From a virus: 51,605 bases of DNA. Shown in pieces: positions 1-21,592 of the stretch. How positions within the stretch are numbered: the first letter of the stretch is position 1; every line of letters starts with the position of its first letter. A program made the translations under genes and the position numbers. Below the pieces are notes generated by a model. It was not told the DNA's origin, ran no database searches, and was given only the letters and a program-made list of their open reading frames with translations. The stretch lies in IMG/VR virus record IMGVR_UViG_3300046533_000736, positions 1 to 51,605 of that record; one strand, 5' to 3'.

Positions 1-116
1 GCCCGCGCTGGCGGTGCACGCCCGAAACGCACGCAGCACGCAGCAAGGCACGACCGAAGTGACAGGGTGTCACTTCGTACCACGTAGTACCCTCAACCAA
101 GAAAGGAATGTGCAAC
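1..116 (+). promoter_or_regulatory. Leader upstream of the MoxR-type ATPase gene
   Basis: No gene is seen in these 116 bases. They hold the first copy of a dispersed palindrome (55-77) and a GAAAGGA ribosome-binding site (101-107) serving the ATG at 117. I see no convincing sigma-70 promoter. The true promoter may lie left of the window, or the palindrome may be part of the control region. Confidence 0.4.
55..77. repeat. Dispersed palindrome, copy 1
   Basis: Perfect inverted repeat CGAAGTGACA-GGG-TGTCACTTCG with 10-base arms and a 3-base spacer, lying in the leader 40 bases before the first gene. The core AAGTGACA-N3-TGTCACTT recurs at 1652 and 5441, and a variant lies at 13027. Its size and symmetry suit a dimeric repressor operator or a small palindromic element. 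Confidence 0.85.
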
Positions 117-1220
117 ATGGATGTGACCGTTTGTAACTACCAAGAAGCTCTCGATTCCACCATCCGCCTGCTGAAGTCGGATGCCGTGGATGCTGTCCTG
201 ATCCAAGGCCCGCCCGGTGTCGGCAAGACCGCGATGAAGGATGCGGTCGCTGCGGCCCTCGCGTACATGCACCTGTTCATGCTCAAGCTGTCGCATCACG
301 ACGTGACTGACGTGGCGGGTATCCCGGTGCCCATTCACGATATCAAGCGCAGCCTGTTCTATCCCTCCGCTGACATGCTGCCGCCGTCCGATCTCACGGG
401 TGGGCTGCTCGTCGTGCTGGACGAGATCGGCGACTGCAACATCGCGCAGCAGAACCTCGCGTGTCAGATGGTGTTCGAGAAGGCCATCCACTCGTACACG
501 TTTCCGCAGGGCACCAAGTTTCTGCTCACCACCAACCGGGTTGGCGATCGCAGCGGTGCCAATCGGATCGTCACCAAGCTGGGCAATCGCTGCGCGGTGC
601 TGACGCTGATCCCGACCGTGGACAACCTGTTCAACTACGGCTCCGCGAATGGCTGGAATCCGGTGCTGCTGGCGTTCCTGAAGATGCACGGTGCGGAGCG
701 GATCAACCCGGAGGACAAGCGGGAGAACGCGCCGACGTATCTCAACTCGTTCGATCCGATGGCTCCGGATCAGATCAACAACCCGGTGTTCTCGTCGAGC
801 CGCAGCTTGGAATTCACGTCCAAGTATCTCAACTACGTGGATGCCAACGAGCCGAACCTTGATCCCGTGGTGCTGATGCGGGATACCGCGACGCTGGTCG
901 GCACGCCGACCGGATCGAAGCTGTCCGCGTTCCGGCGTATCGCGATCCACATGCCCAACCCGGACGACATTGCGAAGAACCCGGACGCGGTGCCGATCCC
1001 GAAGGAGGAGGAAGTGCTGTGGTCCCTCGCGCTGACGATGGTGTCGCGGGCGACGAAGGCGAACGTGGAGAATTTCGCCAAGTACCTGAAGCGTGGTCCG
1101 AAAGAATACTTCGTATTGTTCGGTCGTCAGTGCTTCGACGTGCGCTACCAGCAGACGATGCCTATCTTGAATAAAGTCCTTCAAGATCCGATCCTGAAGT
1201 CGATCCTGCTGGCGCGGTAG
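117..1220 (+). CDS. MoxR-type AAA+ ATPase
   Basis: A 367-residue AAA+ ATPase. Walker A GPPGVGKT starts at residue 31 (K37, T38), Walker B VVLDE ends at D102-E103, and a sensor-1 TTNR follows about 30 residues later. MoxR-family ATPases typically work with a VWA-domain partner to remodel or activate other proteins, and such a partner is encoded at 3046-4284. The ATG at 117 was chosen because GAAAGGA lies 9 bases before it; the in-frame ATG at 108 directly abuts that site. The role in the phage (host takeover, virion maturation or defence) is unknown. Confidence 0.9.
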   Translation: MDVTVCNYQEALDSTIRLLKSDAVDAVLIQGPPGVGKTAMKDAVAAALAYMHLFMLKLSHHDVTDVAGIPVPIHDIKRSLFYPSADMLPPSDLTGGLLVVLDEIGDCNIAQQNLACQMVFEKAIHSYTFPQGTKFLLTTNRVGDRSGANRIVTKLGNRCAVLTLIPTVDNLFNYGSANGWNPVLLAFLKMHGAERINPEDKRENAPTYLNSFDPMAPDQINNPVFSSSRSLEFTSKYLNYVDANEPNLDPVVLMRDTATLVGTPTGSKLSAFRRIAIHMPNPDDIAKNPDAVPIPKEEEVLWSLALTMVSRATKANVENFAKYLKRGPKEYFVLFGRQCFDVRYQQTMPILNKVLQDPILKSILLAR

Positions 1221-1286
1221 TAGCAGGTGTAATGCACGGGGTGCAGGGATGCATCCCGTTTCCCATAAACGAATGCAGAGGAAATC

Positions 1287-1778
1287 ATGCCACACAAGAA
1301 CCGGCAGTTGTCAGCCAACGAAGTCGCCGCACTCGACGTCATCACCAAGCACCCCGGCCTCATGCCGAAGGAAATCGTCACGCATATCGACAACAGCCAG
1401 ATGAGTCAGTCATCGATCTCGGCCTGCACGTCGCGGCTGGTCTGGCTGCGCAAGGTGAACCGAGTCAAGGTGTATGGCTCGCCCGCATTCCGTTATTACC
1501 CGATCAACCACCCGCTGCCGCAGGGACACACGCAATGGAACAACACGCTGGTCAAGGTGGATCGTACGAAGAAGGGCAACGGCGAAGCGCCCATGCCCCC
1601 GAAGCAGGCGATCGACACGCTGACGCGGGATCTGTTCACTGCCGTACCCCCAAGTGACAAAGTGTCACTTCCCAACGTGCTGATCGTGCTGCCGCTGGGC
1701 GAGAAGGAAACCATCACGGTGACGATCGAGCAGGCGCGCACGATCTGGGTGCAGTTGAATTCGATCTTCGGGAAGTAA
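1287..1778 (+). CDS. Winged-helix-like DNA-binding protein
   Basis: 163 residues. The N-terminal 70 residues (LSANEVAALDVITKHPGL..., then a stretch rich in Ser/Gln and a basic strand pair) look like a winged helix-turn-helix domain of the kind found in small transcription regulators. The middle is basic and low in complexity. The C-terminal part (about 125-163) forms a separate strand-helix unit. Palindrome copy 2 lies inside the gene and encodes PSDKVSLP at the junction of the two parts. AGAGGAAATC precedes the ATG. It could regulate the operon through the palindromes, but that is only an inference. Confidence 0.6.
   Translation: MPHKNRQLSANEVAALDVITKHPGLMPKEIVTHIDNSQMSQSSISACTSRLVWLRKVNRVKVYGSPAFRYYPINHPLPQGHTQWNNTLVKVDRTKKGNGEAPMPPKQAIDTLTRDLFTAVPPSDKVSLPNVLIVLPLGEKETITVTIEQARTIWVQLNSIFGK
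1652..1670. repeat. Dispersed palindrome, copy 2 (inside a gene)
   Basis: AAGTGACA-AAG-TGTCACTT, perfect 8-base arms, inside the winged-helix gene. It is read as P-S-D-K-V-S-L, in the same frame as copy 3 inside the HNH gene. Confidence 0.85.
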
Positions 1779-1801
1779 TATCCTTACCATAAAGGAATGA
1801 C

Positions 1802-2659
1802 ATGAACATGAACGACCTGCAACACACGCCCGCAACCCTCCACAATCACGTCGTCGAAGTGCAGTTGACCTGCTCCTTCTCATGGGGCACGGTGACGGAC
1901 ACGATCATCAGCGGCGAGGTGAACACCGCGAAGAATTCCAAGGGCGCGCTGCGCGTGCGCAAGACCCTGCTGCCCGAGGCGAGCGGCGTGCGCGTGAAGG
2001 CCCTGCAGACGGTGCTGGGCGACTTCTATACGTGGCATACGCAGAACACCATGTCCACCCCCACGAAGGGACGCCGCCTTCTTCCTGTGCCGTTCTACAT
2101 GCTGTACATGGAGGAGAAATTCGCCAACGCGAAAGCCGCAGCGGACGAAGCCCTCGAAGATCTGGTCGCGCACTTCGATGCCGACGTGCAGCTTGCGCGC
2201 AACGAATTGCAGGGCGCGTTCAACGCCGACGACTATCCGTCCGCAGAGGAGATCAAGCGGTACTACAACATGGACGTGAAATTCTTCGAGTTGCCGACGA
2301 GTGACAGACTCCTGAGATTATTGGGCGAGAAGGCCGCTGCGGACAACGACGCCTACGTCAGGCAGATGGCGCAGGTCGCGACCGAGGATGCCAAGGCGAA
2401 GCTGCGCAAGGTCGTCGAGTGCATGAACGAACGGCTTGCCAAGCCGGACAACATCTTCCGCGACACGCTGACCGAGAACATGGACGACATGCTGAGTGTC
2501 CTGCCGATGATGAATCTCACCAATGATCCGGCGTTCGATGCGATCATCACGGATGCGAAGCAGACGCTGCAGGGATGGGACCCGAACCAGCTTCGCAAGA
2601 ACCCCGTCGTGCGCTCGCAGGTTGCGAAGGCGGCGGCGGATATCCTGAGTCGGCTATGA
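1802..2659 (+). CDS. DUF3150-like protein, partner of the ATPase/VWA pair
   Basis: 285 residues, mainly helical with charged helices (about 90-260) after a beta-rich N-terminus. I see no catalytic motif. Its size, helical make-up and position between a MoxR ATPase and a VWA protein match DUF3150-type proteins of plasmids and phages, which occur in the same trio. The family call rests on context and general appearance, not on a diagnostic motif. AAAGGA lies 7 bases before the ATG. The stop overlaps the next start (ATGA). Confidence 0.6.
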   Translation: MNMNDLQHTPATLHNHVVEVQLTCSFSWGTVTDTIISGEVNTAKNSKGALRVRKTLLPEASGVRVKALQTVLGDFYTWHTQNTMSTPTKGRRLLPVPFYMLYMEEKFANAKAAADEALEDLVAHFDADVQLARNELQGAFNADDYPSAEEIKRYYNMDVKFFELPTSDRLLRLLGEKAAADNDAYVRQMAQVATEDAKAKLRKVVECMNERLAKPDNIFRDTLTENMDDMLSVLPMMNLTNDPAFDAIITDAKQTLQGWDPNQLRKNPVVRSQVAKAAADILSRL

Positions 2660-2841
2660 GGCAGAAACGCTACCGCTACAAGTACGGCACTCCGGCATGG
2701 GAGAGGGAAGCCAACGCGATGGCGCGCGGCTGGGCACCGAACATCCACGCCTGCAAGAAGTGCGGTTCGCCATGCTTCAACGGCTACTGCTGTCCATACT
2801 GTCAGGACAACAACCCGACCGATCCGCCCGAGGAGAAGTGA
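2656..2841 (+). CDS. Small zinc-ribbon-like protein
   Basis: 61 residues. A basic N-terminus (MRQKRYRYKYG) is followed by a zinc-ribbon-like Cys cluster, CKKCGSPCFNGYCCPYC, and an acidic tail. Two CxxC pairs about ten residues apart fit one structural zinc. It starts on the ATGA that ends the preceding gene and ends on a TGATG that starts the next, so translation is probably coupled. Function unknown. Confidence 0.65.
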   Translation: MRQKRYRYKYGTPAWEREANAMARGWAPNIHACKKCGSPCFNGYCCPYCQDNNPTDPPEEK

Positions 2842-3056
2842 TGCTGCACATGCTGCGGGGTACCAAGACCACCGTCTATCTCACCGACCTGATGCGACGG
2901 GTCGGCGCGATCGACGCCACTCACGCAGTCAACGAACGAGGGGAAACCGTAATCATCTTCACCCTGCACGACAGGCGTACCAAGAAGCAGGTGCTGCGCA
3001 AATCCGCGCAGTTAATCGACGATCGAAACCAAGAAAGGAATCGAGATGGGCATTAG
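2841..3056 (+). CDS. Hypothetical small basic protein
   Basis: 71 residues, basic, with one predicted strand pair (VIIFTLHDRR) and helical ends. No motif is recognised. GAGGAGAAG just upstream inside the previous gene is the ribosome-binding site. The last ten bases overlap the start of the VWA gene. Function unknown. Confidence 0.55.
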   Translation: MLHMLRGTKTTVYLTDLMRRVGAIDATHAVNERGETVIIFTLHDRRTKKQVLRKSAQLIDDRNQERNRDGH

Positions 3057-4284
3057 CAAATTCGAAATCTCCAAAGGCCGCATCGCGTTGCATTGCGGAT
3101 TCATGCTGCCGCTTCTGTCCAAGCTGAAGTGGATCGACACGCCGCATGTGCCGGTCGCCGGTACCAATGGTAAGCAGGCGTATTACAACGGCCAGCACTT
3201 CGAGGATGAACGCACGTTGGGCGAAACGATCTTCATCATCCTGCATGAGATCGGCCACCCGATGTTCGGGCACATGTCGCGGCTCGGCGGAAGGGATAGG
3301 AAACTCGCGAACATCGCGATGGACTACGCGCTCAATCAGCGCATCTGGGAAATGGTGCAGCAGATGCCCGCGCTGAAGGCCGAGTTGCCCAAGGATGCGC
3401 TGATCGATCACGCACGCTGGGGCGACATGAATTGGGAAGCGATCTACGACGTGCTGCGCAAGGAGCAGCCCGAGATCAGCGAACCGGGCGAAGGCGGCAA
3501 CGGTCAGGGTGGCAAGCAGGGGCAGCAGGGCAAGGGCAAGTACAAGATGTTCGACGAGGTGTATCCCGCAGGGCAGACGCTCGACGAGAACGGCAATCCC
3601 GTGGAAGGCAGCGGTACGAGCGACGAGGAAGCGAACACGCTCGACAAGTCGTGGCTGCTCGCCGCGCAGGCTGCGGCGACGATGGCGAAAGCGCGGGGCA
3701 TCCAAGCGGGGATGCTGGAGGAATTCATCAACGACATGATCAAGCCGAACATCGACTGGAAAACCCAGTTACAGGATCTGATCTCGCGGATCGGTCGGGA
3801 CGAATCCTCATGGCGGCGGTTCAACAAGCGGCACATTCATCGTGAGGCATATCTGCCGGGGATGTACTCGGAGCATTGCGGACCGATCGCGTTCATGCTC
3901 GACACGTCGGGCAGCATGAGCAGTGACGAGGGCAAGGCGGCGCTCGGCGCGATGAACGATATCCTTGAGGACGTGAAGCCGGAACGCATCTACTACGGCC
4001 AGTGCGATACGAAGATGCAGGGTGACGTGGAGGAGTTGACGCCGCAGGATCTGCCGCTGGTCGGGATCGAAATGAAGGGACGCGGCGGCACCGACCTGAA
4101 TCCGATCTTCGCGTGGGCGGTCGAGCATCAGCAGGAGATTGACTGCCTGATCGTGCAGACCGACGGGCACATCAGCGAGATCGCGGGTCACAACATCCCG
4201 TACGGGTTGCCGATGATCTGGATCGTGACGACGGACAACGTGACGCATTGCACGTTCGGGCATGTGATTCAGGTAACGCTGTGA
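3046..4284 (+). CDS. VWA-domain metallopeptidase-like protein (DUF2201 type)
   Basis: 412 residues with two recognisable parts. The N-terminal part carries the zinc-peptidase motif HEIGHPMFGH (H67, E68, H71, H76). A Gly/Gln-rich linker follows at about 145-200. The C-terminal von Willebrand A domain has a MIDAS motif DTSGS (D286, S288, S290), a GGTD segment and a later conserved Asp (QTDGH). This matches the DUF2201 metallopeptidase plus VWA-like arrangement. The family partners MoxR ATPases, and one lies at 117-1220. AAGAAAGGA sits 6 bases before the ATG. The target of the complex is unknown. Confidence 0.88.
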   Translation: MGISKFEISKGRIALHCGFMLPLLSKLKWIDTPHVPVAGTNGKQAYYNGQHFEDERTLGETIFIILHEIGHPMFGHMSRLGGRDRKLANIAMDYALNQRIWEMVQQMPALKAELPKDALIDHARWGDMNWEAIYDVLRKEQPEISEPGEGGNGQGGKQGQQGKGKYKMFDEVYPAGQTLDENGNPVEGSGTSDEEANTLDKSWLLAAQAAATMAKARGIQAGMLEEFINDMIKPNIDWKTQLQDLISRIGRDESSWRRFNKRHIHREAYLPGMYSEHCGPIAFMLDTSGSMSSDEGKAALGAMNDILEDVKPERIYYGQCDTKMQGDVEELTPQDLPLVGIEMKGRGGTDLNPIFAWAVEHQQEIDCLIVQTDGHISEIAGHNIPYGLPMIWIVTTDNVTHCTFGHVIQVTL

Positions 4285-4472
4285 TTATCTTTCGGATCAT
4301 GCGACAGATTGGACATAGGGATTGGTTCTTGTTGCTACGCGATCGAACCTACATGTATTCGGGACCGCAGCAATTTCTCTTGCGGGTACTTCGGGAGAAG
4401 CTGCAAGTGGAGAGAGTGAATGAGAACGATCACCATCATCATCCGCAAGGATCGAAAGAGTGGCACGTATGA
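4281..4472 (+). CDS. Array microprotein A
   Basis: 63 residues from the GTG at 4281, which overlaps the previous stop (GTGA), or 57 from the ATG at 4299. The plan is strand (VIIFRIMRQIGHRDWFLLLRD, quoted only in part: basic then W-F-L-L-L-R) followed by a helix (QQFLLRVLREKL). The tail has four consecutive His residues and overlaps the next gene by 53 bases, so the tail may matter little. First member of the tiny-gene array running to 7447. Confidence 0.5.
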   Translation: MIIFRIMRQIGHRDWFLLLRDRTYMYSGPQQFLLRVLREKLQVERVNENDHHHHPQGSKEWHV

Positions 4473-4611
4473 CCTGCACTACAACGACGGCTACGAGGGA
4501 TGGGCGTGGGCCGAACACGTGACAACGCACTTGCGAAAGGATTTGACGCATGCCCTCACCGCAGAGGAAACCGAAGGAGTTGCACGGTACGATTCGCATC
4601 AAGCACTTTGA
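4420..4611 (+). CDS. Array microprotein B
   Basis: 63 residues. A strand TITIIIRKDRK, an aromatic second strand (TYDLHYNDGYEGWAW) and a helix (VTTHLRKDLTHAL) follow the common plan of the array. TGGAGAGA precedes the ATG. The tail overlaps the next gene by 62 bases. Function unknown. Confidence 0.6.
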   Translation: MRTITIIIRKDRKSGTYDLHYNDGYEGWAWAEHVTTHLRKDLTHALTAEETEGVARYDSHQAL

Positions 4612-4960
4612 TGGGTATGGCAGCGAAGGTTTCGCTATTCGGATCAACGATCGAAGATGGTCCGTGCGTATCCATCAGCAGGGTGCAGTACGTACAGTAG
4701 GGAATTGGATCAACTACTGGACGCGCAGCGCAGCGTGGACGAAACTCAACTATGAAGGAAACAAGATGATTCGCGTACTGATCAAGAAGGAACCGCCGTT
4801 CGAATTGCACGTCGTCGTGAATCCCACGGACGCGCTGAACATCGAGAAGATCGAAGCGGACGGGCACTACCACGTGGGCGACTACGATGGCGAGAAGCAG
4901 ATCGACGAAGCCGTTGCGTCCGTCGCCACCTATCTCGAATTGGAGGAGAGCCACACGTGA
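4550..4960 (+). CDS. Array protein C/D, two-module form
   Basis: 136 residues in one frame that look like two array units end to end. Unit C (about 10-72) has GTIRIKHFDG, then EGFAIRIND and RWSVRI strands and a Trp-rich helix-like segment. Unit D begins at the internal Met at 4766 with MIRVLIKKEPPFELHVVVN and ends with a helix (IDEAVASVATYLELEE). AAAGGA lies 8 bases before the ATG at 4550, and GAAGGAAAC precedes the ATG at 4766, so the second unit may also be made alone. Confidence 0.65.
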   Translation: MPSPQRKPKELHGTIRIKHFDGYGSEGFAIRINDRRWSVRIHQQGAVRTVGNWINYWTRSAAWTKLNYEGNKMIRVLIKKEPPFELHVVVNPTDALNIEKIEADGHYHVGDYDGEKQIDEAVASVATYLELEESHT

Positions 4961-5109
4961 ACCTGCCGATCGTCATCCGGCGCTCATTGCCATACAGCAA
5001 GGGGGGCTACATCGTCGTGAGCCTGAGTCCGCTGTGGCGTCCGGACATTGCTGGCGTGCTGACCACGCTGCAGATCATGCTCGAAACGCGAGTAGGGCGG
5101 CGCGCGTGA
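4957..5109 (+). CDS. Array microprotein E
   Basis: 50 residues from a GTG that overlaps the previous stop (GTGA). Strand LPIVIRRS, second strand GGYIVVSLSPLW, then the helix DIAGVLTTLQIMLETRV. It is clearly similar to microprotein G (PIIIRRS ... helix ILTMLRTML). Function unknown. Confidence 0.65.
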   Translation: MNLPIVIRRSLPYSKGGYIVVSLSPLWRPDIAGVLTTLQIMLETRVGRRA

Positions 5110-5255
5110 CCACCTACACCATCACTCGGGTGCCGCCACCCCTGTACGGCGGCGCACCCTTCGCCATTGCCATCGACGGCGTAGGGCTGGGCAACGTGAC
5201 GACACCAGTGGCACTCAACCTGCTGCGGCTGGAGTTGATCCATGCGCTGGGATAA
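5106..5255 (+). CDS. Array microprotein F
   Basis: 49 residues from a GTG overlapping the previous stop (GTGA). Strand TYTITRV, second strand PFAIAIDGVG, then a helix TPVALNLLRLELIHAL. It has the same plan as its neighbours. Function unknown. Confidence 0.6.
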   Translation: MTTYTITRVPPPLYGGAPFAIAIDGVGLGNVTTPVALNLLRLELIHALG

Positions 5256-5412
5256 GCTGAATCCCGACAAGCCGATCATCATCCGGCGTTCCAGCGATTT
5301 CGGCTTCGCCATCTATCTCAATCATCTCAATCCGACCTATCCGCTGTATCGGGAAACCGCGCGGGGAATCCTCACCATGCTGCGCACCATGCTGAAACGG
5401 AGACTCCAATGA
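5242..5412 (+). CDS. Array microprotein G
   Basis: 56 residues. Strand KPIIIRRSSD, second strand GFAIYLNHL, helix ARGILTMLRTMLKRRL. Nearest visible relative of microprotein E, two genes upstream. It overlaps both neighbours: 14 bases with F and 4 bases with the HNH gene. Confidence 0.65.
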   Translation: MRWDKLNPDKPIIIRRSSDFGFAIYLNHLNPTYPLYRETARGILTMLRTMLKRRLQ

Positions 5413-5957
5413 TCAAACCCACCGCGATCATGGCGTCCCCAAGTGACAGTCTGTCACTTCGCGTACCCCTCGCTCGGGGTGGACGCTTCGGCAAATGGAC
5501 GCTGCTCGAACGCGAGGACGAGCGCAAGTGGCTGTGCAGGTGCGACTGCGGCGTCGTCAAGGCCGTGGATCGCAGCAACCTGCGCTCTGGGCGTAGCACG
5601 TCGTGTAATAAAGGAGCATGCCGTACCCCCTCGCGCCCGGCGTCCGCTGAAAGATTCTGGTCACACGTGAACATGACCGGTGGGGCCGGTGCCTGCTGGC
5701 CGTGGGTGGGTGCAGTGGGCAAGAAAGGGTATGGCGTGCTGTCATGGAACGGCTACACGTATTCCGCGCATCGCGTCGCAGCGTGGCTGTCCGGGATCAT
5801 CGAGGATCCCTACGAGCCGAAGAAGCTGTACGGCATCCTGATCGGGCACGAATGCGACAACAAGGTGTGCTGCAATCCTGCACACCTGCGGCGTACGACG
5901 AACGCACAGAACACGAAGGAGACATGGGAACGTATACGAAGGGGCAAAAGCAAATGA
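5409..5957 (+). CDS. HNH endonuclease with N-terminal zinc ribbon
   Basis: 182 residues. Residues about 18-70 form a zinc-ribbon-like module (GKWTLLE, then CRCDCG, then SNLRSGRSTSC), common at the front of phage HNH proteins. The C-terminal HNH_3-type domain shows SAHRVAAWLSG, then GHECDNKVCCNPAHL and an ending with TTNAQN. The last is the usual H-N-H metal and catalytic signature. Such genes are often mobile (homing-type). Here it splits the microprotein array, and palindrome copy 3 lies in its first 20 codons, adding SPSDSLSL ahead of the ribbon. Confidence 0.88.
   Translation: MIKPTAIMASPSDSLSLRVPLARGGRFGKWTLLEREDERKWLCRCDCGVVKAVDRSNLRSGRSTSCNKGACRTPSRPASAERFWSHVNMTGGAGACWPWVGAVGKKGYGVLSWNGYTYSAHRVAAWLSGIIEDPYEPKKLYGILIGHECDNKVCCNPAHLRRTTNAQNTKETWERIRRGKSK
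5441..5459. repeat. Dispersed palindrome, copy 3 (inside the HNH gene)
   Basis: AAGTGACA-GTC-TGTCACTT with perfect 8-base arms, near the 5' end of the HNH gene. It is read as P-S-D-S-L-S-L, the same frame as copy 2. Confidence 0.85.
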
Positions 5958-6148
5958 CGTCGCAACGTCGTCCTGCACGACGCATCAGCATGTGCGTTTG
6001 GGGTGACACGATGCATGCCGTGCACATCACGGTCAAATGGATACCATCCACAATCCAGACGCGGATGAAGGAAGAAGTCGCGTGGTTCTGGACGAGGGAT
6101 GAAATGGTGCCGAAACTACGCCAGCGACTCGAAAGGTATCTGAAATGA
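5954..6148 (+). CDS. Array microprotein H
   Basis: 64 residues. A basic N-terminus, a strand MHAVHITVKWIP and a long C-terminal helix (DEMVPKLRQRLERYL). Starts on the ATGA at the end of the HNH gene. Function unknown. Confidence 0.6.
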   Translation: MTSQRRPARRISMCVWGDTMHAVHITVKWIPSTIQTRMKEEVAWFWTRDEMVPKLRQRLERYLK

Positions 6149-6333
6149 AACTACGATTCTATGGCGTACGCCTGTACACCGATGCGAATACGTATGAGGC
6201 TGTCATCATCGTGCGCAAGCTGAGTGACAGCGGGTATGCGGAGGACGGCATGCGCTCGACGTCGCTGCACTCGATCCTGACGCAGGTGCGGCATCACATC
6301 CAGACGTACCTGCATACCGGCCGGCATCTATGA
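6145..6333 (+). CDS. Array microprotein I
   Basis: 62 residues. Strands KLRFYGVRLY and YEAVIIVRKL, then a helix LHSILTQVRHHIQTYL. ATGA overlap with the gene before and after. Function unknown. Confidence 0.65.
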   Translation: MKLRFYGVRLYTDANTYEAVIIVRKLSDSGYAEDGMRSTSLHSILTQVRHHIQTYLHTGRHL

Positions 6334-6485
6334 AAAAATTCACCTTCCGACATTACTGGGACACGACGGCGTGGCGCATGGTCATCCGTACCGACACGAT
6401 GCCCATACCCGAGTCCAAGCATTACGGTTCGGCGGAAGCAGTTATCGCGATGCTGGCGTACTACATTCGAAGGGTGCAGAAATGA
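6330..6485 (+). CDS. Array microprotein J
   Basis: 51 residues. Strand KKFTFRHYWD, second strand AWRMVIRTD, then a helix SAEAVIAMLAYYIRRVQ. A compact member of the array with coupled start and stop (ATGA at both ends). Confidence 0.65.
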   Translation: MKKFTFRHYWDTTAWRMVIRTDTMPIPESKHYGSAEAVIAMLAYYIRRVQK

Positions 6486-6736
6486 AACCGCCCATCTTCT
6501 GCGCTGCGGTTGGAACCAAGCTGGATGGCACGTTCCACATCTTTGTCCAACGAGCGATGCCGGTACGCAAGGGGTACTACGTGGTCACAACCGATGCAAC
6601 CAACCTATGCAAATGGATGAAAGAATGCTTGACGAAACACATCGATACGCAATGTCGCACCGCAGGGGCAAGCGCAAGTACACCTGCAAGATCATCATCC
6701 GCAGAAGCTGGCTCGCGGGTTTCGAAGCGCGGATGA
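6482..6736 (+). CDS. Array microprotein K with an unusual tail
   Basis: 84 residues. The first 56 follow the array plan: strands IFCAAVG and FHIFVQRAM, then YYVVTTD and a helix LCKWMKECLTKHI. The last 28 are Ser/Ala/Arg-rich and lie over the next gene in another frame. The tail is probably a by-product of the overlap, or the array unit is joined to the next frame by a frameshift. Confidence 0.55.
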   Translation: MKPPIFCAAVGTKLDGTFHIFVQRAMPVRKGYYVVTTDATNLCKWMKECLTKHIDTQCRTAGASASTPARSSSAEAGSRVSKRG

Positions 6737-6804
6737 AAGATGATCAGATCAACGCACTGGAGAAGCTACTACGAAAGGCGAGCGTATGGAAAAACCTGAA
6801 GTGA
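6652..6804 (+). CDS. Array microprotein L
   Basis: 50 residues from the ATG at 6652; upstream in-frame ATGs at 6607, 6613 and 6625 are possible and none has a good ribosome-binding site. Strand YTCKIIIRRSWLAGFEARM, then helix INALEKLLRKASVW. The IIIRRS segment matches microproteins E and G. It overlaps K by 85 bases or more. Confidence 0.5.
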   Translation: MSHRRGKRKYTCKIIIRRSWLAGFEARMKDDQINALEKLLRKASVWKNLK

Positions 6805-6980
6805 TCCAAGCATTGCGCGAAAGAGCCAAGCTGTTCGCGTTCGAGGATAAGTCGATCGGCATCTACGCGGAACACCAAGTCGTAACGCTGCTGCTCACCG
6901 CTGCGACCATGATCGAGGAAAGCCATGCACCGAGTCACGTTCAAGATCTACACCCGGTACAGATCCGACTCGTCCCGTGA
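6786..6980 (+). CDS. Small helical protein M in the array
   Basis: 64 residues, mostly helical (PEVIQALRERAKLFAF and HQVVTLLLTAATMIEE). It lacks the opening basic strand of its neighbours and so may not be a paralogue. The last 19 codons overlap the next gene. Function unknown. Confidence 0.55.
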   Translation: MEKPEVIQALRERAKLFAFEDKSIGIYAEHQVVTLLLTAATMIEESHAPSHVQDLHPVQIRLVP

Positions 6981-7131
6981 GCGCATTGCGCTGGGTGCTG
7001 ATAGCGTCGAGCGGTTCATTGTCGTGCGCCGGGACCCTGATGATTTTTCGGGCTGGGCATCCGCCGACGGTACCTGCGGGCACCTGCGCGATGCGCTGAA
7101 ATTCTACTTTGCCGGGCACCATCCACGATGA
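6925..7131 (+). CDS. Array microprotein N
   Basis: 68 residues. Strand HRVTFKIYTRY, second strand ERFIVVRRDPDD, then Trp/Gly turn and a helix GHLRDALKFYF. GAGGAAAG lies before the ATG. Stop overlaps the next start. Confidence 0.65.
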   Translation: MHRVTFKIYTRYRSDSSRERIALGADSVERFIVVRRDPDDFSGWASADGTCGHLRDALKFYFAGHHPR

Positions 7132-7310
7132 ACCAATACTTCATACAGATCAAATACAACCGTCCACGTACCGAATGGGAGGACGTCGAACGCCTCATTA
7201 TCAACAAAGATGACGGGTGCTGGCCTGCGTCCATCGTGCAGCAACGCCTGCACAACTGGCTCGTCATGTATTTCCACAACATTAGGAAAGGAGCCACACC
7301 ATCAAAGTGA
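7128..7310 (+). CDS. Array microprotein O
   Basis: 60 residues. Strand QYFIQIKYNR, second strand VERLIINKDDG, then helix ASIVQQRLHNWLVMYFHNI. Starts on ATGA overlapping N. Function unknown. Confidence 0.65.
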   Translation: MNQYFIQIKYNRPRTEWEDVERLIINKDDGCWPASIVQQRLHNWLVMYFHNIRKGATPSK

Positions 7311-7447
7311 TCATCAGCAGGGTCGGTAATTTCTGGCGCATGGTCACGGAAGATTCGAAAGACGGCACCGTCGAGCGGGTGTTCGTGCCCAGCGTCATCA
7401 TCAAGTTTCTACTGCACTATTTGAAAGGCAAGGACAAGGAGAAATGA
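7307..7447 (+). CDS. Array microprotein P, uncertain start codon
   Basis: 46 residues from the GTG at 7307: strand VIISRVGNFWRMVTED, then strand VERVFV and a helix SVIIKFLLHYLKG. The ribosome-binding site AAAGGAG (7287-7293) is 13 bases from that GTG but 7 bases from an in-frame ATC at 7301, which would give I/M-K-V-I-I-S. So the start could be GTG with loose spacing or a rare ATC. Confidence 0.55.
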   Translation: MIISRVGNFWRMVTEDSKDGTVERVFVPSVIIKFLLHYLKGKDKEK

Positions 7448-7448
7448 A

Positions 7449-8240
7449 ATGGCAGAAGATAATAAGGAAATGACACCATCGCTGGTGATGCGGCGGTTCT
7501 TTCATGCACTCAAGACCGAGAATCTGATGGCTGCGGAACTGCTGGCCACCCACGACAACTTCGACGGCGGCGACGTCGACTACGTTCGCACACTCAACAA
7601 GCTGGTCATCGACGGTCTGTCGACTGCGACAATCGAATGGCTGCTGACCTACGCCAAGGGATGCAATCGCCGGTTCTTTCGTCCCGGCAGCGAGTACGCG
7701 GGACGGCGGCATAATCGCGGCAACAACTGGCGTGGGTGGATCTGCGACATGGTTCGGCGCTGGATGGCCGTAGCAGGTGCGATGACCGATGAACAGCGCC
7801 GCATCGCACGGCTCACCTACGAACTCAATTGGCTGACACCCGGCTACGAATTGATGGATTCGCCGACGGGGCGCGACTGGCTGATGAAGATCAGCACGCC
7901 GGACAAGATCCTGAAGATGGCGCTGACCATGCGTACCCATTGGGAAGGCGGCAAGCACGTCAAGCAGCCGATCTGCTTCGTGCTGGTCGACACGCTGATA
8001 GCCAAGGCTCCGGTCGACCTGTCGAAGTGCGGCGATGAATTGCTGGCGCAGTACAAGAGCGACGATGCTGGACGTGCAGTCGCGCTACGGTTGATCCGGG
8101 CACGCGACACCAACATCCCGATGCCGAAGGAATTCACCGAATTCATTCAGGAAGTCGTCGAGCAGTACAAGTGGTACCAACGTGTAACTCAGGATTTGCC
8201 CACGCTAATCGGAGCCAAGACCCATGAAATCGATCCTTGA
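7449..8240 (+). CDS. Hypothetical helical protein
   Basis: 263 residues, largely helical, with several Trp and Arg residues and no recognised motif. AAGGAG (7436-7441) lies 7 bases before the ATG, the strongest ribosome-binding site in this part. It closes the microprotein array; the next gene begins inside its last codons. Function unknown. Confidence 0.75.
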   Translation: MAEDNKEMTPSLVMRRFFHALKTENLMAAELLATHDNFDGGDVDYVRTLNKLVIDGLSTATIEWLLTYAKGCNRRFFRPGSEYAGRRHNRGNNWRGWICDMVRRWMAVAGAMTDEQRRIARLTYELNWLTPGYELMDSPTGRDWLMKISTPDKILKMALTMRTHWEGGKHVKQPICFVLVDTLIAKAPVDLSKCGDELLAQYKSDDAGRAVALRLIRARDTNIPMPKEFTEFIQEVVEQYKWYQRVTQDLPTLIGAKTHEIDP

Positions 8241-8400
8241 TCCATCCTTCAAGTACGTCGACAGCGCGCACACCAACCTGCGCAAGACGTTCGAGCGTAT
8301 CCGCAGGGAGCAGCAACCGCCCCCACAACCCGCACCTGCGCTGCCGTCGAACGTCGTGCCGCTTTACACTGGTACGCCCGTACCAAACGTAACTCGTTGA
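8224..8400 (+). CDS. Hypothetical small Pro-rich protein
   Basis: 58 residues. A helical front (NLRKTFERIRREQ) is followed by a Pro/Gln-rich tail. It overlaps the previous gene by 17 bases. No motif is recognised. Confidence 0.5.
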   Translation: MKSILDPSFKYVDSAHTNLRKTFERIRREQQPPPQPAPALPSNVVPLYTGTPVPNVTR

Positions 8401-8409
8401 AAAAGTTAC
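8389..8409. promoter_or_regulatory. Short inverted repeat before the PEP-CTERM gene
   Basis: GTAACT-N9-AGTTAC overlaps the end of the preceding gene, about 50 bases before the PEP-CTERM start. It could be an operator for separate expression of that gene. The arms are only 6 bases long, so chance is possible. I see no good -10/-35 pair. Confidence 0.25.
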
Positions 8410-8461
8410 ATGGTCCGTTCGTTGCTTCACCGTGCAAGTCAACCATCCAAGGGAGCCGCCC

Positions 8462-9283
8462 ATGTTTCGAACCGCACTAGCAGTCGCCCTCCTCGGCATC
8501 ACCACGGCAGCGTCCGCAACGCTGTGCGACCTGTCGGCCAGCAAGGATCTGTCCTGCACCATCAACGGCACGATCTTCGCCAACCCGTCGAACCTGACCA
8601 ACATCGGCAGCGGCACCATCTTCCCGTTCCTGACCACGCAGGCGGTCGGCAGCGAGTCGGGCTTCACTACCGACGAACCCGCGCCGAGTCAACTGCCGCT
8701 CGACGACAAGCGCGACAACAGCAATACGTTCACCAACACGTTCGCGGATCAGAACCTCGGCACAGTGACGGTCAACGGCATCACCTACTTCGCGTTCTTC
8801 CTCGACACCAACGAGCCGGACGGCGGCACCGATCCGCTGATCTCGCTCGACAGCTTCGCCATCTTCGACACCGGCAGCACCTCGGCCTTCACCAACACCA
8901 CCAAGACCGAAACACTGGCGCAACTGGATGCCACGCCGGGCTTCAGCCTGATCTACAGCCTCGACACGCTGACGCAGGACAACACCGTGCTGCTCGACTC
9001 GTCGCTGTTCAAAGGCAGCGGCCTTGGCTTCGACATGACGATGTTGATCCCGGTATCGCTGTTCAACGGAGTCAACCCCGGCGATCGCCTCGTCGTCACC
9101 ACGCAGTTCGGCCTGAGTGGCGGCACGATCACGGGCGCTGGCACGGCGGACGGCTTCGAGGAGTGGAACGCTGCGGTCGGTGCGGTACCCCCGCCGCCGC
9201 CCCCGCCGATCCCGGAACCTGCTACGCTTGCGCTGTTGGGTATCGGCCTCATGGGTCTGTTCGGCGCACGACGCTTTCGCTGA
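8462..9283 (+). CDS. PEP-CTERM sorting-signal protein (exported)
   Basis: 273 residues. A clean signal peptide (MFRTALAVALLGITTAASA) leads into a Thr/Ser/Asp-rich beta domain of about 210 residues with few charged helices. A Pro run is followed by the C-terminal signal: IPEPATLALLG, a hydrophobic helix and a basic end, GARRFR. This is a textbook PEP-CTERM tripartite tail, recognised in Gram-negative bacteria by exosortase. The protein is expected to be exported and handled at the cell envelope or in exopolysaccharide. The ATG at 8462 starts the signal peptide directly. A strong terminator follows, so it looks like a self-contained accessory (moron-like) unit. Confidence 0.9.
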   Translation: MFRTALAVALLGITTAASATLCDLSASKDLSCTINGTIFANPSNLTNIGSGTIFPFLTTQAVGSESGFTTDEPAPSQLPLDDKRDNSNTFTNTFADQNLGTVTVNGITYFAFFLDTNEPDGGTDPLISLDSFAIFDTGSTSAFTNTTKTETLAQLDATPGFSLIYSLDTLTQDNTVLLDSSLFKGSGLGFDMTMLIPVSLFNGVNPGDRLVVTTQFGLSGGTITGAGTADGFEEWNAAVGAVPPPPPPPIPEPATLALLGIGLMGLFGARRFR

Positions 9284-9304
9284 TCTTCCTGTCTCTGTCC
9301 TTGC

Positions 9305-9333
9305 GCCGGGGTCCTCATGCCCCGGCTTTTTTT
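9305..9333 (+). terminator. Rho-independent terminator after the PEP-CTERM gene
   Basis: GCCGGGG (9305-9311) pairs with CCCCGGC (9320-9326) over an 8-base loop and is followed by seven T. It ends transcription just after the PEP-CTERM gene and before microprotein Q. Confidence 0.9.
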
Positions 9334-9343
9334 CGTGGGTCAT

Positions 9344-9361
9344 AAATGAACATCGTCATTC
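9344..9361 (+). repeat. 18-base direct repeat, copy 1 (gene start)
   Basis: AAATGAACATCGTCATTC spans the start of microprotein Q. The identical 18 bases at 9460-9477 span the start of the DNA polymerase gene, so both proteins begin MNIVI. Confidence 0.9.
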
Positions 9362-9465
9362 GGCAGGTCTACGAAAACTGGTATGCACTTATCGTCAACG
9401 GGCATCACGTCTGGACCGGCACCCGCGATGACTGCATCCACAACATGCGGCAACTATTCAAATGA
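9346..9465 (+). CDS. Array-type microprotein Q, before the polymerase
   Basis: 39 residues. Strand NIVIRQVYEN, second strand WYALIVNGHHVW, then a helix DDCIHNMRQLF. It has the compact plan of the array at 4281-7447 but stands 1.9 kb away. It ends on the ATGA that begins the polymerase gene, so the two are translationally coupled. Confidence 0.65.
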   Translation: MNIVIRQVYENWYALIVNGHHVWTGTRDDCIHNMRQLFK

Positions 9466-9477
9466 ACATCGTCATTC
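9460..9477 (+). repeat. 18-base direct repeat, copy 2 (polymerase start)
   Basis: Second copy of AAATGAACATCGTCATTC, 116 bases after the first. Confidence 0.9.
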
Positions 9478-11330
9478 TCGATTTCGAAACTTTCTGGGAT
9501 CAGGATTACACGCTGTCGAAGATCAGCACCGAGCAGTACGTGCGCGACCCTCGCTTCGAAGTGATCGGCGTTTCCATCAAACAAGGACCGGAGGCTGCGC
9601 AATGGTTCTCGGACCCGCTGGAAGTACACACCGCGCTGAACGCTATCAATTGGAGCGAGTCAGCATTACTGGCACACAATACCTACTTCGATGGTGCGAT
9701 TCTGGGATGGCACTTCGGTATTTATCCCGCGTTCTATCTGGACACGATGTCGATGGCACGCCCGCGATTCAACATGACGTGCGGTACGTCATTAGCCGCA
9801 CTTTCGAAAGCATTTGAGATCGGCGTCAAGGGCATCGACGCGGTCACGTTCAAGGGCTACCGCCGTGCCGACTTCACTGCCCACGATCTCGCGCAGTACG
9901 GACGCTACTGCTGCAACGATGTCGAGCTTACGTGGCGGCTGTTCCAGAAATTGCGCGAGCAGGGCGAACACGAATTCCACCTGATCAATCAGTACATCAA
10001 GCTGTTCGTCGAGCCGCTGCTGCAAGTGGACGACCTGCTGCTGCAGGATCATCTGCTCGAAGTGCAAGCGTATCGCGAAGCGGGCCTGAACATGGCCGCG
10101 TACGAACTCGGCATCGAACCCGAGAAGTTGAAGCAGGACGTCGTGAGCAACGAGAAATTTGCCAAGCTGCTCGAATCGATCGGCGTAGATCCGCCGAAAA
10201 AGATCAGTCCGACCACCGGCAAGGTCACGTGGGCATTCAACAAGACCGATCAGGGTTTCATCGAAATGCAGGAGGAAGCCGAGAACGATCCCGACACGCT
10301 GATCAAGACGCTGATCGGCGCGCGGGTCGAGAACAAGAGCAGCATCGAGGAAACCCGTACCAACCGGCTGATCGGCGTAGCATCGCGTGGCATGTTGCCG
10401 GTCTATCTCGGACACTACCAAGCGCACACCGGGCGTGCGGGCGGCGGCGACATGATCAACCTGCAGAACCTGCCGGTGCGCGACACCCGCTACGAGTACC
10501 CGATCCGGCAGGCGCTGTGCGCGCCGCCCGACCATGAGTGCATCAGCGCCGATCTGGCGCAGATCGAAGCGCGCATCCTCGCGTGGCTGGCCGGGCAGCA
10601 GGACGTCGTCGAAGCCTTTCGCGCGTACGACGAGGGACGTGGCCCTGACATCTACTGTGTAACAGCCAGTACCATCTTCGGACGGACGATTACACGGGGG
10701 GACGAGAAGGAACGGATGATCGGCAAGATCGTTCGGCTCGCGCTGGGCTACGGCATGTCGCACGTCAAGTTTGCCCGCGTGGCCAAGGTCAAGCAGCAGG
10801 AAGCCTACGACATCGTCACCCGGCACCGACAGGCGTCGCGGCACATCGTCGACCTGTGGGATCAGGGCAACAGCGCGCTGCGCTGCATCCTTGTGCATGA
10901 GCAGGGGGTGCTGGGCAAGCACGGCGCGCTGCGGGTGAGCAGCGAGGGAATCCACCTGCCGAAGTGGGGCCGGGTGATCCGCTACCCGAACCTGACCCAT
11001 CACGCGCGCTGCGAGGAGCATCCGGCGTTCTACACCTATCAGAACCGCAAGAAGCTGCCGAAGGTGTACGGAGCCAAGGTGATCGAGAATTGCGTGCAGG
11101 CGCTGGCCGGGATCGTCGTGGCCGAGGCATGGCTGCGGCTGGTGGCGCGCGGCCTGACGGTGGTATTGCAGGTCCATGATGAGCTAGTATGCGTAGCACA
11201 CAAGAACGACGTCGATCGGTGGCTGCCGGTGATCAAGGAAGAAATGACCCGCGTTCCCGACTGGGCACCCGGCCTGCCGGTCGCCTGTACCATCGGCCAC
11301 GACCCGCGCTATGGGTTGGCGAAAGGGTAA
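9462..11330 (+). CDS. Family A DNA polymerase with 3'-5' exonuclease
   Basis: 622 residues. The N-terminal proofreading domain has Exo I LDFET (D7, E9), an Exo II AHNTYFD segment and an Exo III YCCNDVE. The polymerase domain has motif A SADLAQIEAR (D364), motif B RMIGKIVRLALGYG (R418, K422) and motif C LQVHDE (H572, D573, E574). There is no 5'-3' exonuclease domain, as in T7-type polymerases. It should replicate the phage DNA with the primase-helicase and SSB encoded downstream. The start overlaps the microprotein Q stop. Confidence 0.96.
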   Translation: MNIVILDFETFWDQDYTLSKISTEQYVRDPRFEVIGVSIKQGPEAAQWFSDPLEVHTALNAINWSESALLAHNTYFDGAILGWHFGIYPAFYLDTMSMARPRFNMTCGTSLAALSKAFEIGVKGIDAVTFKGYRRADFTAHDLAQYGRYCCNDVELTWRLFQKLREQGEHEFHLINQYIKLFVEPLLQVDDLLLQDHLLEVQAYREAGLNMAAYELGIEPEKLKQDVVSNEKFAKLLESIGVDPPKKISPTTGKVTWAFNKTDQGFIEMQEEAENDPDTLIKTLIGARVENKSSIEETRTNRLIGVASRGMLPVYLGHYQAHTGRAGGGDMINLQNLPVRDTRYEYPIRQALCAPPDHECISADLAQIEARILAWLAGQQDVVEAFRAYDEGRGPDIYCVTASTIFGRTITRGDEKERMIGKIVRLALGYGMSHVKFARVAKVKQQEAYDIVTRHRQASRHIVDLWDQGNSALRCILVHEQGVLGKHGALRVSSEGIHLPKWGRVIRYPNLTHHARCEEHPAFYTYQNRKKLPKVYGAKVIENCVQALAGIVVAEAWLRLVARGLTVVLQVHDELVCVAHKNDVDRWLPVIKEEMTRVPDWAPGLPVACTIGHDPRYGLAKG

Positions 11331-11340
11331 AGGAGGACAA

Positions 11341-11691
11341 ATGGCACTGACACCCATGAGCATGCACGACGCCAGTGAGCGTTGTTTCATCTGCGACAAT
11401 CACCTCACCGTCGAAAACTGCGCTGTCGTTTTTGCTTGCTTCAACGGCAGCCTTACCATCGGCGATTGCTGCATCGGCATGTTCATGTCGTCGATGATTC
11501 AGGACTACGCCACACTGCTACAGCGATACCATGCCGAACATCTGATCCATGCATCGTCAGGTAAAGCGGTCGCCAAGGCGTGCGCGGAAATTTCCCGGCG
11601 TAGTTTTCAGTGGGCGGACATCATGGCCTCTCTACAAAAGCCTTCCGCAAAATTCTCGATCTCGCTGGACCAATTCGACGAGGACAAGTAA
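11341..11691 (+). CDS. Hypothetical Cys-rich protein
   Basis: 116 residues. The front half has CFICDN, then several spaced Cys (CAVVFAC, GDCC) that might bind zinc; the rest is helical. The perfect ribosome-binding site AAAGGAGG just before the ATG at 11341 fixes the start. Function unknown. Confidence 0.7.
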   Translation: MALTPMSMHDASERCFICDNHLTVENCAVVFACFNGSLTIGDCCIGMFMSSMIQDYATLLQRYHAEHLIHASSGKAVAKACAEISRRSFQWADIMASLQKPSAKFSISLDQFDEDK

Positions 11692-11886
11692 ATGAAGTGG
11701 GTGCTGCTCCTGCTGGCTATCGCGGGCTGCACCAGCGTCTATGTACAGACGGGCAACGGGCGTCTTGAAAGCAGCAGCAACATCGAGAAAAGTGGGCGCG
11801 TAGGACGCAGCAGCACAACCACCGAAATCCAACCCAAGAAGGAGAAAGACGATGGCAGCGATATCGATCCCCGGCCTGACCTATAA
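11692..11886 (+). CDS. Putative small lipoprotein
   Basis: 64 residues. MKWVLLLLAIAGC is a short signal peptide ending in a lipobox (I-A-G-C), followed by a hydrophilic Ser/Lys/Asp tail. It should be lipidated at Cys13. It resembles outer-membrane spanin subunits (Rz1-like) in size, but no inner-membrane spanin is seen beside it, so that role is only a possibility. The end overlaps the next gene by 35 bases. Confidence 0.6.
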   Translation: MKWVLLLLAIAGCTSVYVQTGNGRLESSSNIEKSGRVGRSSTTTEIQPKKEKDDGSDIDPRPDL

Positions 11887-12322
11887 CGGTAAGCCCTGCA
11901 GCTACGACGATGGTATTACCGATACGCAATCACCGCCCGCAGGCGGTGGCACCGAGCCGAAGGCCGGGGCCGGGCCAAACAGCTATCTGTACAGCAAGGT
12001 GAAAAACGGCACGCCGGACAACTTCTGGCTGGGCAAGAAGCTGTACGATTACAAGCAGGATCTCGCGTCGATGCCGGGGTCGCATCAGTTGTACTACGAC
12101 ATCCTCGTCAACAACTACGGCAAGCGGTACTCGGATGCAAATCCAGCACCCGCAGGCTATTACAAGGACGAGCCGATGAAGAAGCACATCGACGCGCTGA
12201 TCAACGACGCCAGCTACAACGGCCAGCAATTCGACATGGCGTCGTATACTGGCCCGCTGATTCCAATCTACGATCAACTGGTCGTGGACATGAAGGCCGG
12301 GCTGATCGGACCGCCCGCTTGA
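11852..12322 (+). CDS. Hypothetical protein
   Basis: 156 residues, Tyr/Pro/Gly-rich with a helical middle (YDYKQDLASMPG ... MKKHIDALIND). No motif or family is recognised. AAGAAGGAG precedes the ATG inside the lipoprotein gene. Confidence 0.6.
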   Translation: MAAISIPGLTYNGKPCSYDDGITDTQSPPAGGGTEPKAGAGPNSYLYSKVKNGTPDNFWLGKKLYDYKQDLASMPGSHQLYYDILVNNYGKRYSDANPAPAGYYKDEPMKKHIDALINDASYNGQQFDMASYTGPLIPIYDQLVVDMKAGLIGPPA

Positions 12323-21392: not shown

Positions 21393-21592
21393 CGCATTCG
21401 CAGTACCGGGATGGAAATCCCACCAAACAGTACCCCTAGTAATACGATCACCGCGATCAATCCCAGCACCACCATGACCACCGTCTTGAACGGATCCGGT
21501 AGTGGGATCTGCCCAACGACCCAGTAGATCAGGTAGAAAACGAGGGCGAGTACGACAACGGTAATCAGCAGACCGATTAGTCCTTCCATCAT
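21389..21592 (-). CDS. Two-helix membrane protein, possible holin
   Basis: 67 residues, two hydrophobic helices (about 4-26 and 37-58) joined by QIPLPDPFK, with a basic end (VLRMR). Size and topology fit a small holin. The sequence also resembles a bacterial family of small membrane proteins of unknown function (Thivi_2564 type), so the holin role is inferred. It is the last minus-strand gene, after the giant polyvalent protein, with which it overlaps by 4 bases. Confidence 0.6.
   Translation of the reverse strand: MMEGLIGLLITVVVLALVFYLIYWVVGQIPLPDPFKTVVMVVLGLIAVIVLLGVLFGGISIPVLRMR

What the first reader, a model, noticed from the sequence alone, without database searches (positions are those of the whole stretch)
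4281..7447. Array of about sixteen overlapping microprotein genes that look like diverged paralogues
Many of the 40-70-residue products share one plan: a strand ending in basic residues (IVIRRS, IIIRRS, IIIRRS, FIQIKY), an aromatic second strand and a C-terminal amphipathic helix (helices such as ILTMLRTML, LTTLQIML). Genes overlap stop to start, so translation is coupled. Identity between neighbours is too low to align by eye beyond E, G and L, so paralogy is an inference from layout. The function is unknown; an expanded set of small host-takeover or anti-defence proteins is one idea.
Basis: partly seen in the sequence, partly recalled or inferred. Interest (0 to 1): 0.85.

Follow-up and report, generated by a model that had tools for sequence, protein, structure and literature searches.

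The report
Phage array of diverged microprotein paralogues
A bacterial virus carries a tightly packed run of about fifteen tiny overlapping genes, at least seven of which descend from one ancestral 40-60-residue three-strand-plus-helix protein that was copied and diverged; what the proteins do is untested, but the array looks like an expandable kit of small accessory proteins.

Summary
The array is real, with corrections. Fifteen short ORFs and one HNH endonuclease lie stop-to-start on the + strand at 4281-7447. One short product (g3, 136 aa) is two units fused. Most genes shared with the only close relative found are under purifying selection.

Profile-profile comparison links g2, g4, g6, g9, g11, g12 and g14 into one network (4 of 120 array pairs above 20% probability; 0 of 1088 array-versus-control pairs). 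A leave-one-out family model also picked out a gene outside the array, g18 (9346-9465), just before DNA polymerase. Modelled with its paralogues, g18 is a confident beta-beta-beta-alpha unit (pLDDT 93). g1, g8, g10, g15, g16 and g3C fit the plan but are unproven; g13 does not belong.

The relative lacks g1, g4-g6 and g18, with clean junctions at the overlapping TGA stop/start for g1 and g4-g6. Several genes have run on past their ancestral stop.

No family in Pfam, PHROGs or NCBIfam matches, and no member was found in about 170 other phage loci. Best reading: a radiated set of small binding modules for host takeover or counter-defence. That function is inference only.

The parts
4281..4472 (+). 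g1, 63 aa; core about 46 aa then run-on tail (NENDHHHHPQG...) read through g2 in another frame; absent from L001
   Evidence: unproven family member (176/1000 shuffles score as high)
4420..4611 (+). g2, 63 aa, MRTITIIIRKDRKSGTYDLHYNDGYEGW...; core family member
   Evidence: leave-one-out HMM 2/1000 shuffles; linked to g14; dN/dS 0.31
4550..4960 (+). g3, 136 aa, two units in one frame (g3N about 4577-4744, g3C from ATG 4766)
   Evidence: DSSP of a low-confidence model gives two successive beta-beta-beta-alpha units (pLDDT 39); g3N linked to g5 at 14.8%; dN/dS 0.20
4957..5109 (+). g4, 50 aa; core family member; absent from L001
   Evidence: g4-g6 hhalign probability 91%, 39% identity; Smith-Waterman z 11.8
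5106..5255 (+). g5, 49 aa; likely member; absent from L001
   Evidence: included in A10; linked to g3N at 14.8%
5242..5412 (+). g6, 56 aa; core family member; absent from L001
   Evidence: leave-one-out score 21.1 bits, 0/1000 shuffles and 0/626 background ORFs
5409..5957 (+). HNH endonuclease, 182 aa, inside the array (follows g3 directly in L001)
   Evidence: PHROG 3593 E 8e-20; 91% identical in L001
5954..6148 (+). g8, 64 aa; compatible plan, unproven
   Evidence: 94% identical in L001, dN/dS 0.15
6145..6333 (+). g9, 62 aa; family member
   Evidence: leave-one-out 13/1000 shuffles; linked to g14 and g6
6330..6485 (+). g10, 51 aa; compatible, unproven; 34% identical to its positional counterpart in L001
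6482..6736 (+). g11, 84 aa; family member with a run-on tail of about 28 residues over g12
   Evidence: g4-g11 probability 38.6%; tail 0 syn/6 nonsyn in its own frame, 5 syn/1 nonsyn in g12's
6652..6804 (+). g12, 50 aa (alternative ATG 6607); family member, very basic
   Evidence: g6-g12 probability 25.7%; dN/dS 0.06
6786..6980 (+). g13, 64 aa; not a family member by inspection
   Evidence: left out of the family set
6925..7131 (+). g14, 68 aa; family member
   Evidence: leave-one-out 14/1000; linked to g2 and g9; dN/dS 0.22
7128..7310 (+). g15, 60 aa; compatible, unproven
   Evidence: dN/dS 0.43; g14-g15 6.5%
7307..7447 (+). g16, 46 aa; compatible, unproven
   Evidence: dN/dS 0.21
9346..9465 (+). 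g18, 39 aa, MNIVIRQVYENWYALIVNGHHVWTGTRDDCIHNMRQLFK; member outside the array, 4-nt overlap with DNA polymerase; absent from L087
   Evidence: top-two background hit in six leave-one-out runs; model pLDDT 93.1, E3-9 E12-17 E20-25 H27-38
9344..9361 (+). 18-nt direct repeat, first copy (start of g18); second copy 9460-9477 at the polymerase start
4965..4985 (+). 21-nt repeat shared by g4 and g6 (other copy 5271-5291), 90% identical
9305..9326 (+). terminator-like hairpin plus T run between the PEP-CTERM gene and g18
   Evidence: listed first, 8 pairs with 7 G-C, T7 tail; the scan as a whole finds no more sites than shuffles do

Best explanation
The array is a gene family that radiated inside one phage lineage. 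An ancestral microgene for a beta-beta-beta-alpha unit of about 40-60 residues was copied within the replication-side operon, between the VWA-metallopeptidase gene and g17. The copies kept stop/start overlaps, so they are probably co-transcribed and translationally coupled. Whole genes are gained and lost with junctions at the overlapping TGA, and stop-codon loss has produced out-of-frame tails (g1, g2, g11, g13) and one in-frame fusion (g3). Shown: layout, purifying selection on most shared genes, paralogy of a core set, the predicted fold of one member, the run-on of g11, and gain/loss between two phages. Inferred: that every short gene except g13 belongs, that the copies arose by duplication in this lineage, and that each protein is a small binding module with its own target, together serving as a quickly changing kit for host takeover or counter-defence. 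Most products are basic, so some targets may be nucleic acid.
For: Paralogy: hhalign finds 7 of 120 array pairs above 10% and 4 above 20% probability; column-shuffled versions give 2 of 1200 above 10% and 0 above 20%. Array versus 68 annotated small proteins of other phages gives 3 of 1088 above 10% and 0 above 20%; control versus control gives 2 of 900 above 10% and 1 above 20%. g4-g6 probability is 91%. Leave-one-out HMMs recover g6, g4, g2, g9 and g14, and repeatedly rank g18, never used in training, first or second among 626 background ORFs. Fold: g18 with paralogue alignment A10, pLDDT 93.1. Selection. Run-on: the g11 tail overlapping g12 has 0 synonymous/6 nonsynonymous changes in the g11 frame and 5/1 in the g12 frame. 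Turnover: L001 lacks g1 and g4-g6 with junctions at GTGA, and L087 lacks g18. In the roughly syntenic Rhizobium phage RHph_TM3_14A only 400 bp separate the metallopeptidase gene from the next annotated gene.
Against: g1, g3C, g3N, g5, g8, g10, g11, g12, g15 and g16 are not individually significant in the leave-one-out test, although g11, g12, g3N and g5 have hhalign links. The g3 model is poor (pLDDT 39). A small beta-beta-beta-alpha unit is a common arrangement, and no fold search passes E 0.001, so shared fold alone could be convergence. Only one relative carries the array, so the direction of change (gain or loss) is unknown. No data bear directly on function or expression.
Confidence: 0.5

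Rival explanations
1. A set of small nucleic-acid-binding proteins: stand-alone beta-beta-beta-alpha domains that bind phage or host DNA/RNA through the basic sheet edge (IIIRR).
For: 13 of the 17 units have pI 8.0 or above and most carry net positive charge; weak fold rows include double-stranded-RNA-binding domains, Z 2.4-4.1.
Against: No AP2 match in the window at E up to 10; Z values are in the range of common arrangements; g3C and g2 are acidic.
Confidence: 0.25
2. Only a few genes (g4/g6 and near kin) are true duplicates; the others are unrelated small phage genes whose overlap and similar size give a false family look.
For: Only about seven genes form the significant network; six others are significant in no test; small proteins of this shape are common in phages.
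Against: A leave-one-out model trained on the array finds g18 outside it; array pairs are linked far more often than array-control pairs.
Confidence: 0.3
3. Subunits of one hetero-oligomer, such as an accessory complex of the replication machinery, with copies specialised to neighbouring positions.
For: Location between the VWA gene and DNA polymerase; a member touches the polymerase start; one fusion already exists.
Against: The relative lacks g1, g4, g5, g6 and g18, so there is no fixed set of subunits.
Confidence: 0.1
4. Antitoxin-like modules (HicB N-terminal-like) that neutralise host HicA-type toxins.
For: HicB N-terminal domain appears among fold rows with 26% identity, Z 2.7, 39 aligned.
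Against: No HicB profile match in the window at E up to 10, while the same search rings in 11 of 14 control genomes; Z is in the noise range.
Confidence: 0.06

Closest known systems
Bacillus phage SPO1 host-takeover module
   Same: A cluster of 24-26 phage genes; eight products attenuated host growth when tested, and several have known host targets (PMC6873191, PMC10531801)
   Different: I know of no report that its genes form one paralogous family; phage, host and sequences unrelated; here no growth effect or early expression has been shown
Multi-copy Acr paralogues in single archaeal virus genomes
   Same: Several uncharacterised paralogues of small anti-defence proteins in one virus genome (PMC11065993)
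   Different: No sequence relation tested; no anti-defence activity known here
DUF1508/UPF0339 (NMB1088, 3bid)
   Same: Beta-beta-beta-alpha unit; the g18 model aligns with Z 4.2, rmsd 1.9, 39 residues; from general knowledge YegP has two such units in tandem, as g3 seems to
   Different: No profile match in the window; Z is in the range of common arrangements
Rhizobium phage RHph_TM3_14A replication region
   Same: Order ATPase, metallopeptidase, DNA polymerase, RecB-like exonuclease, SNF2 helicase; polymerase 33% identical
   Different: No array between metallopeptidase and polymerase

Membership tests
DUF1508 (PF07411) | match to the family profile | tested here: not met
   no match at E up to 10 in the window, control rings in 8 of 14 genomes; none in the Pfam scan of 19 members
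DUF1508 (PF07411) | beta-beta-beta-alpha fold | tested here: inconclusive
   Z 4.2, rmsd 1.9 over 39 residues to 3bid_G; Z under 8 may be only a common arrangement
HicB antitoxin (PF15919) | match to the family profile | tested here: not met
HicB antitoxin (PF15919) | N-terminal fold | tested here: inconclusive
   6g1c/6g1n Z 2.7, 26% identity
HicB antitoxin (PF15919) | adjacent HicA toxin gene | not tested
   neighbours were not scanned for HicA specifically
AP2 DNA-binding domain (PF00847) | match to the family profile | tested here: not met
SPO1-type host-takeover module | tight cluster of many small genes | tested here: met
SPO1-type host-takeover module | early expression and effects on host growth | not testable with these tools
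   needs infection RNA data and expression assays
Schitoviridae (N4-like phages) | giant virion RNA polymerase | tested here: inconclusive
   the 2391-aa protein matches a DarB-like antirestriction PHROG, not a polymerase; the record may be incomplete

The most novel reading that the evidence does not exclude
A phage 'microprotein nursery': a single small fold duplicated and diverged in an overlapping operon, where each TGA/ATG overlap is an exchange point, giving a fast-changing set of single-domain effectors, each with a different host target; stop-loss run-on then turns neighbours into larger two-unit proteins.
Probability: 0.25. Interest if true: 0.75.

Novelty: new variant of a known kind. 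Interest (0 to 1): 0.55.

Why it matters
Most small early phage genes have no known relatives and are treated as unconnected orphans. Here at least seven to ten orphans can be shown to be one family, with a confident predicted fold for one member. That suggests many orphan phage microproteins may be unrecognised duplicates. The gene set differs between two close phages and the run-on and fusion steps can be read directly, so it is a tractable case of how new small phage proteins arise. If the members hit different host targets, the array would be a compact library of host inhibitors.

Tried and rejected
Named families: no member matches Pfam, PHROGs or NCBIfam convincingly. PDB sequence search with the family profile: nothing. 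Foldseek with the g3 model: meaningless at pLDDT 39. Foldseek with g18: no E under 0.001 in PDB or BFVD; several unnamed 38-62 aa phage proteins reach TM 0.75-0.83.

A BFVD row, Achromobacter phage JWDelta, led me to the 143-aa product of JJJA_0024 (row linked to gene by size only). It contains YTGTKDACLRVASKL, like WTGTRDDCIHNMRQL of g18. Its domain also occurs in larger Pbunavirus proteins. tblastn with g18 itself finds nothing significant in phages, so this stays a lead.

Wider search: family and single-gene HMMs against ORFs of about 170 loci (2 Mb) from polymerase and metallopeptidase relatives found no member, though many contigs are cut short. Genome-contig scan: nothing. Profile A10 cannot be used for a collection scan. 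A first hhalign run timed out and was rerun smaller. Several alternative protein alignments were unstable, which is why A10 was chosen for modelling.

A mechanical chain count finds at most 5 short ORFs in a row per 6-kb stretch in the window and 7 in L001, against at most 5 in other loci; this rule excludes the longer overlaps and the HNH gene, so it under-counts. Papers searched for paralogous phage microprotein arrays: none found, so absence of a precedent is weak evidence. Rfam: nothing in 1-12000.
Full report
What is there. The window is an entire IMG/VR virus record of 51,605 bases. Left of about 21 kb the genes run on the + strand: an ATPase, a VWA/DUF2201 metallopeptidase (3046-4284), the array, g17 (7449-8240, no known family), a 58-aa ORF, a PEP-CTERM protein, g18, a family A DNA polymerase (9462-11330), an exonuclease, a helicase and a primase. 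To the right, structural genes and a 2391-aa DarB-like protein run on the - strand. The metallopeptidase has relatives in N4-like phages at about 28% identity, but the polymerase and gene order are nearer to Rhizobium phage RHph_TM3_14A. I do not assign it to Schitoviridae.

The array. Between VWA and g17 are 16 ORFs, 15 of them short (46-84 aa, plus the 136-aa g3) and one HNH endonuclease of 182 aa. Ten of the 16 junctions are the 4-nt overlap RTGA. Starts have Shine-Dalgarno-like matches of at least 5 nt more often than other ATG/GTG in the region (38% versus 10%).

Are they genes? One close relative exists in IMG/VR, contig IMGVR_UViG_3300045284_000093 (L001/L002/L087; metallopeptidase 93%, polymerase 81% identical). 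Of the 11 array genes shared with it, ten have dN/dS below 0.5 and g10 has 0.61; the range starts at 0.06 for g12. g1, g4, g5, g6 and g18 have no orthologue, so their coding status rests on layout and, for g4, g5, g6 and g18, on family resemblance.

Are they paralogues? Pairwise alignment with shuffles gives g4-g6 a z of 11.8 and a trail of weaker links around the motif [IV]x[IV]R[RK]. hhalign on orthologue-pair profiles gives 7 of 120 pairs above 10% probability and 4 above 20%; shuffled columns give 2 and 0 of 1200. Against 68 annotated small proteins from seven other phage records, the array gives 3 and 0 of 1088, and controls among themselves 2 and 1 of 900. The links above 20% are g4-g6, g4-g11, g2-g14 and g6-g12; those of 10-20% are g3N-g5, g9-g14 and g6-g9. 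So g2, g4, g6, g9, g11, g12 and g14 form one network. Leave-one-out family models independently recover g2, g4, g6, g9 and g14. In six of these runs the best or second-best background ORF was one I had not considered, at 9346-9462 (g18), which proved to be a short gene overlapping the polymerase start by ATGA. Finding it without training on it is the strongest sign that the family signal is real. g1, g3C, g8, g10, g15 and g16 are not significant in any test.

Fold. g18, aligned with g2, g4, g5, g6 and g3N (A10), gives an AlphaFold2 model with mean pLDDT 93.1: strands 3-9, 12-17, 20-25 and helix 27-38. The g3 model has pLDDT 39 and is not usable as a structure, though its secondary structure shows the same order twice. 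PDB comparison gives only low-Z rows (best 4.6), among them DUF1508, double-stranded-RNA-binding domains and HicB; profile tests for DUF1508, HicB and AP2 are negative.

How it changes. L001 lacks g1 and g4-g6. In both cases the junction falls at the overlapping GTGA, so that the next gene (g2, HNH) takes over the start. L087 has no g18 before its polymerase. g18 and the polymerase share 18 nt including two bases before the start codon (9344-9361 and 9460-9477), which suggests recombination or duplication at that point. g10 is only 34% identical to its counterpart. In g11, the tail over g12 shows 0 synonymous and 6 nonsynonymous changes in its own frame but 5 and 1 in g12's, while its core shows 9 and 4: the tail is read-through, not a conserved part. 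The tails of g1, g2 and g13 look the same by inspection only. g3 is the in-frame version, with an internal AAGGA and ATG still present in both phages.

Distribution. No member was found in about 170 loci around related metallopeptidase or polymerase genes, nor with g12 in all of IMG/VR beyond the same contig. The array is therefore known from two phages. Contig ends and weak sequence signal limit this.

Function. Nothing shows what the proteins do. They are small, mostly basic, variable between close relatives and placed in the replication-side gene block. That pattern fits accessory proteins aimed at the host, as in the SPO1 host-takeover module (PMC6873191, PMC10531801), but layout is not membership. 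I put the paralogy of the core set at about 0.85 to 0.9, the claim that nearly all short genes belong at about 0.6, and host-directed function at about 0.4. These are judgements, not computed values.

Verdict. A real and unusual array; partial proof of a single family; function open.

Noticed in passing
window 8462-9283 (ORF from 8432): A phage gene for a probably exported protein with a PEP-CTERM sorting signal (TIGR02595, 24.4 bits, cut-off 16), 86% identical in the relative with dN/dS about 0.27. Such signals normally belong to bacterial exosortase substrates.
   Followed up: partly
window 9344-9361 and 9460-9477: Perfect 18-nt direct repeat joining the start of g18 to the start of DNA polymerase.
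   Followed up: partly
window 21589-28764 (- strand): 2391-aa protein with DarB-like antirestriction and other large phage profile matches.
   Followed up: no
window 47443-50717 (- strand): Two neighbouring tail-fibre-like genes with collagen repeats, one with an S74 chaperone domain.
   Followed up: no
L093 11398-11829: JWDelta JJJA_0024 (143 aa) holds a stretch resembling g18 (YTGTKDACLRVASKL); related stretches also sit in larger Pbunavirus proteins.
   Followed up: partly
window 7449-8240: g17, 263 aa, 62% identical in L001, no match in Pfam, PHROGs or NCBIfam.
   Followed up: partly
L089, L090: Two short contigs with a structural protein 87% and 72% identical to the window's (33637-35343); no array member was detected in them.
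   Followed up: partly
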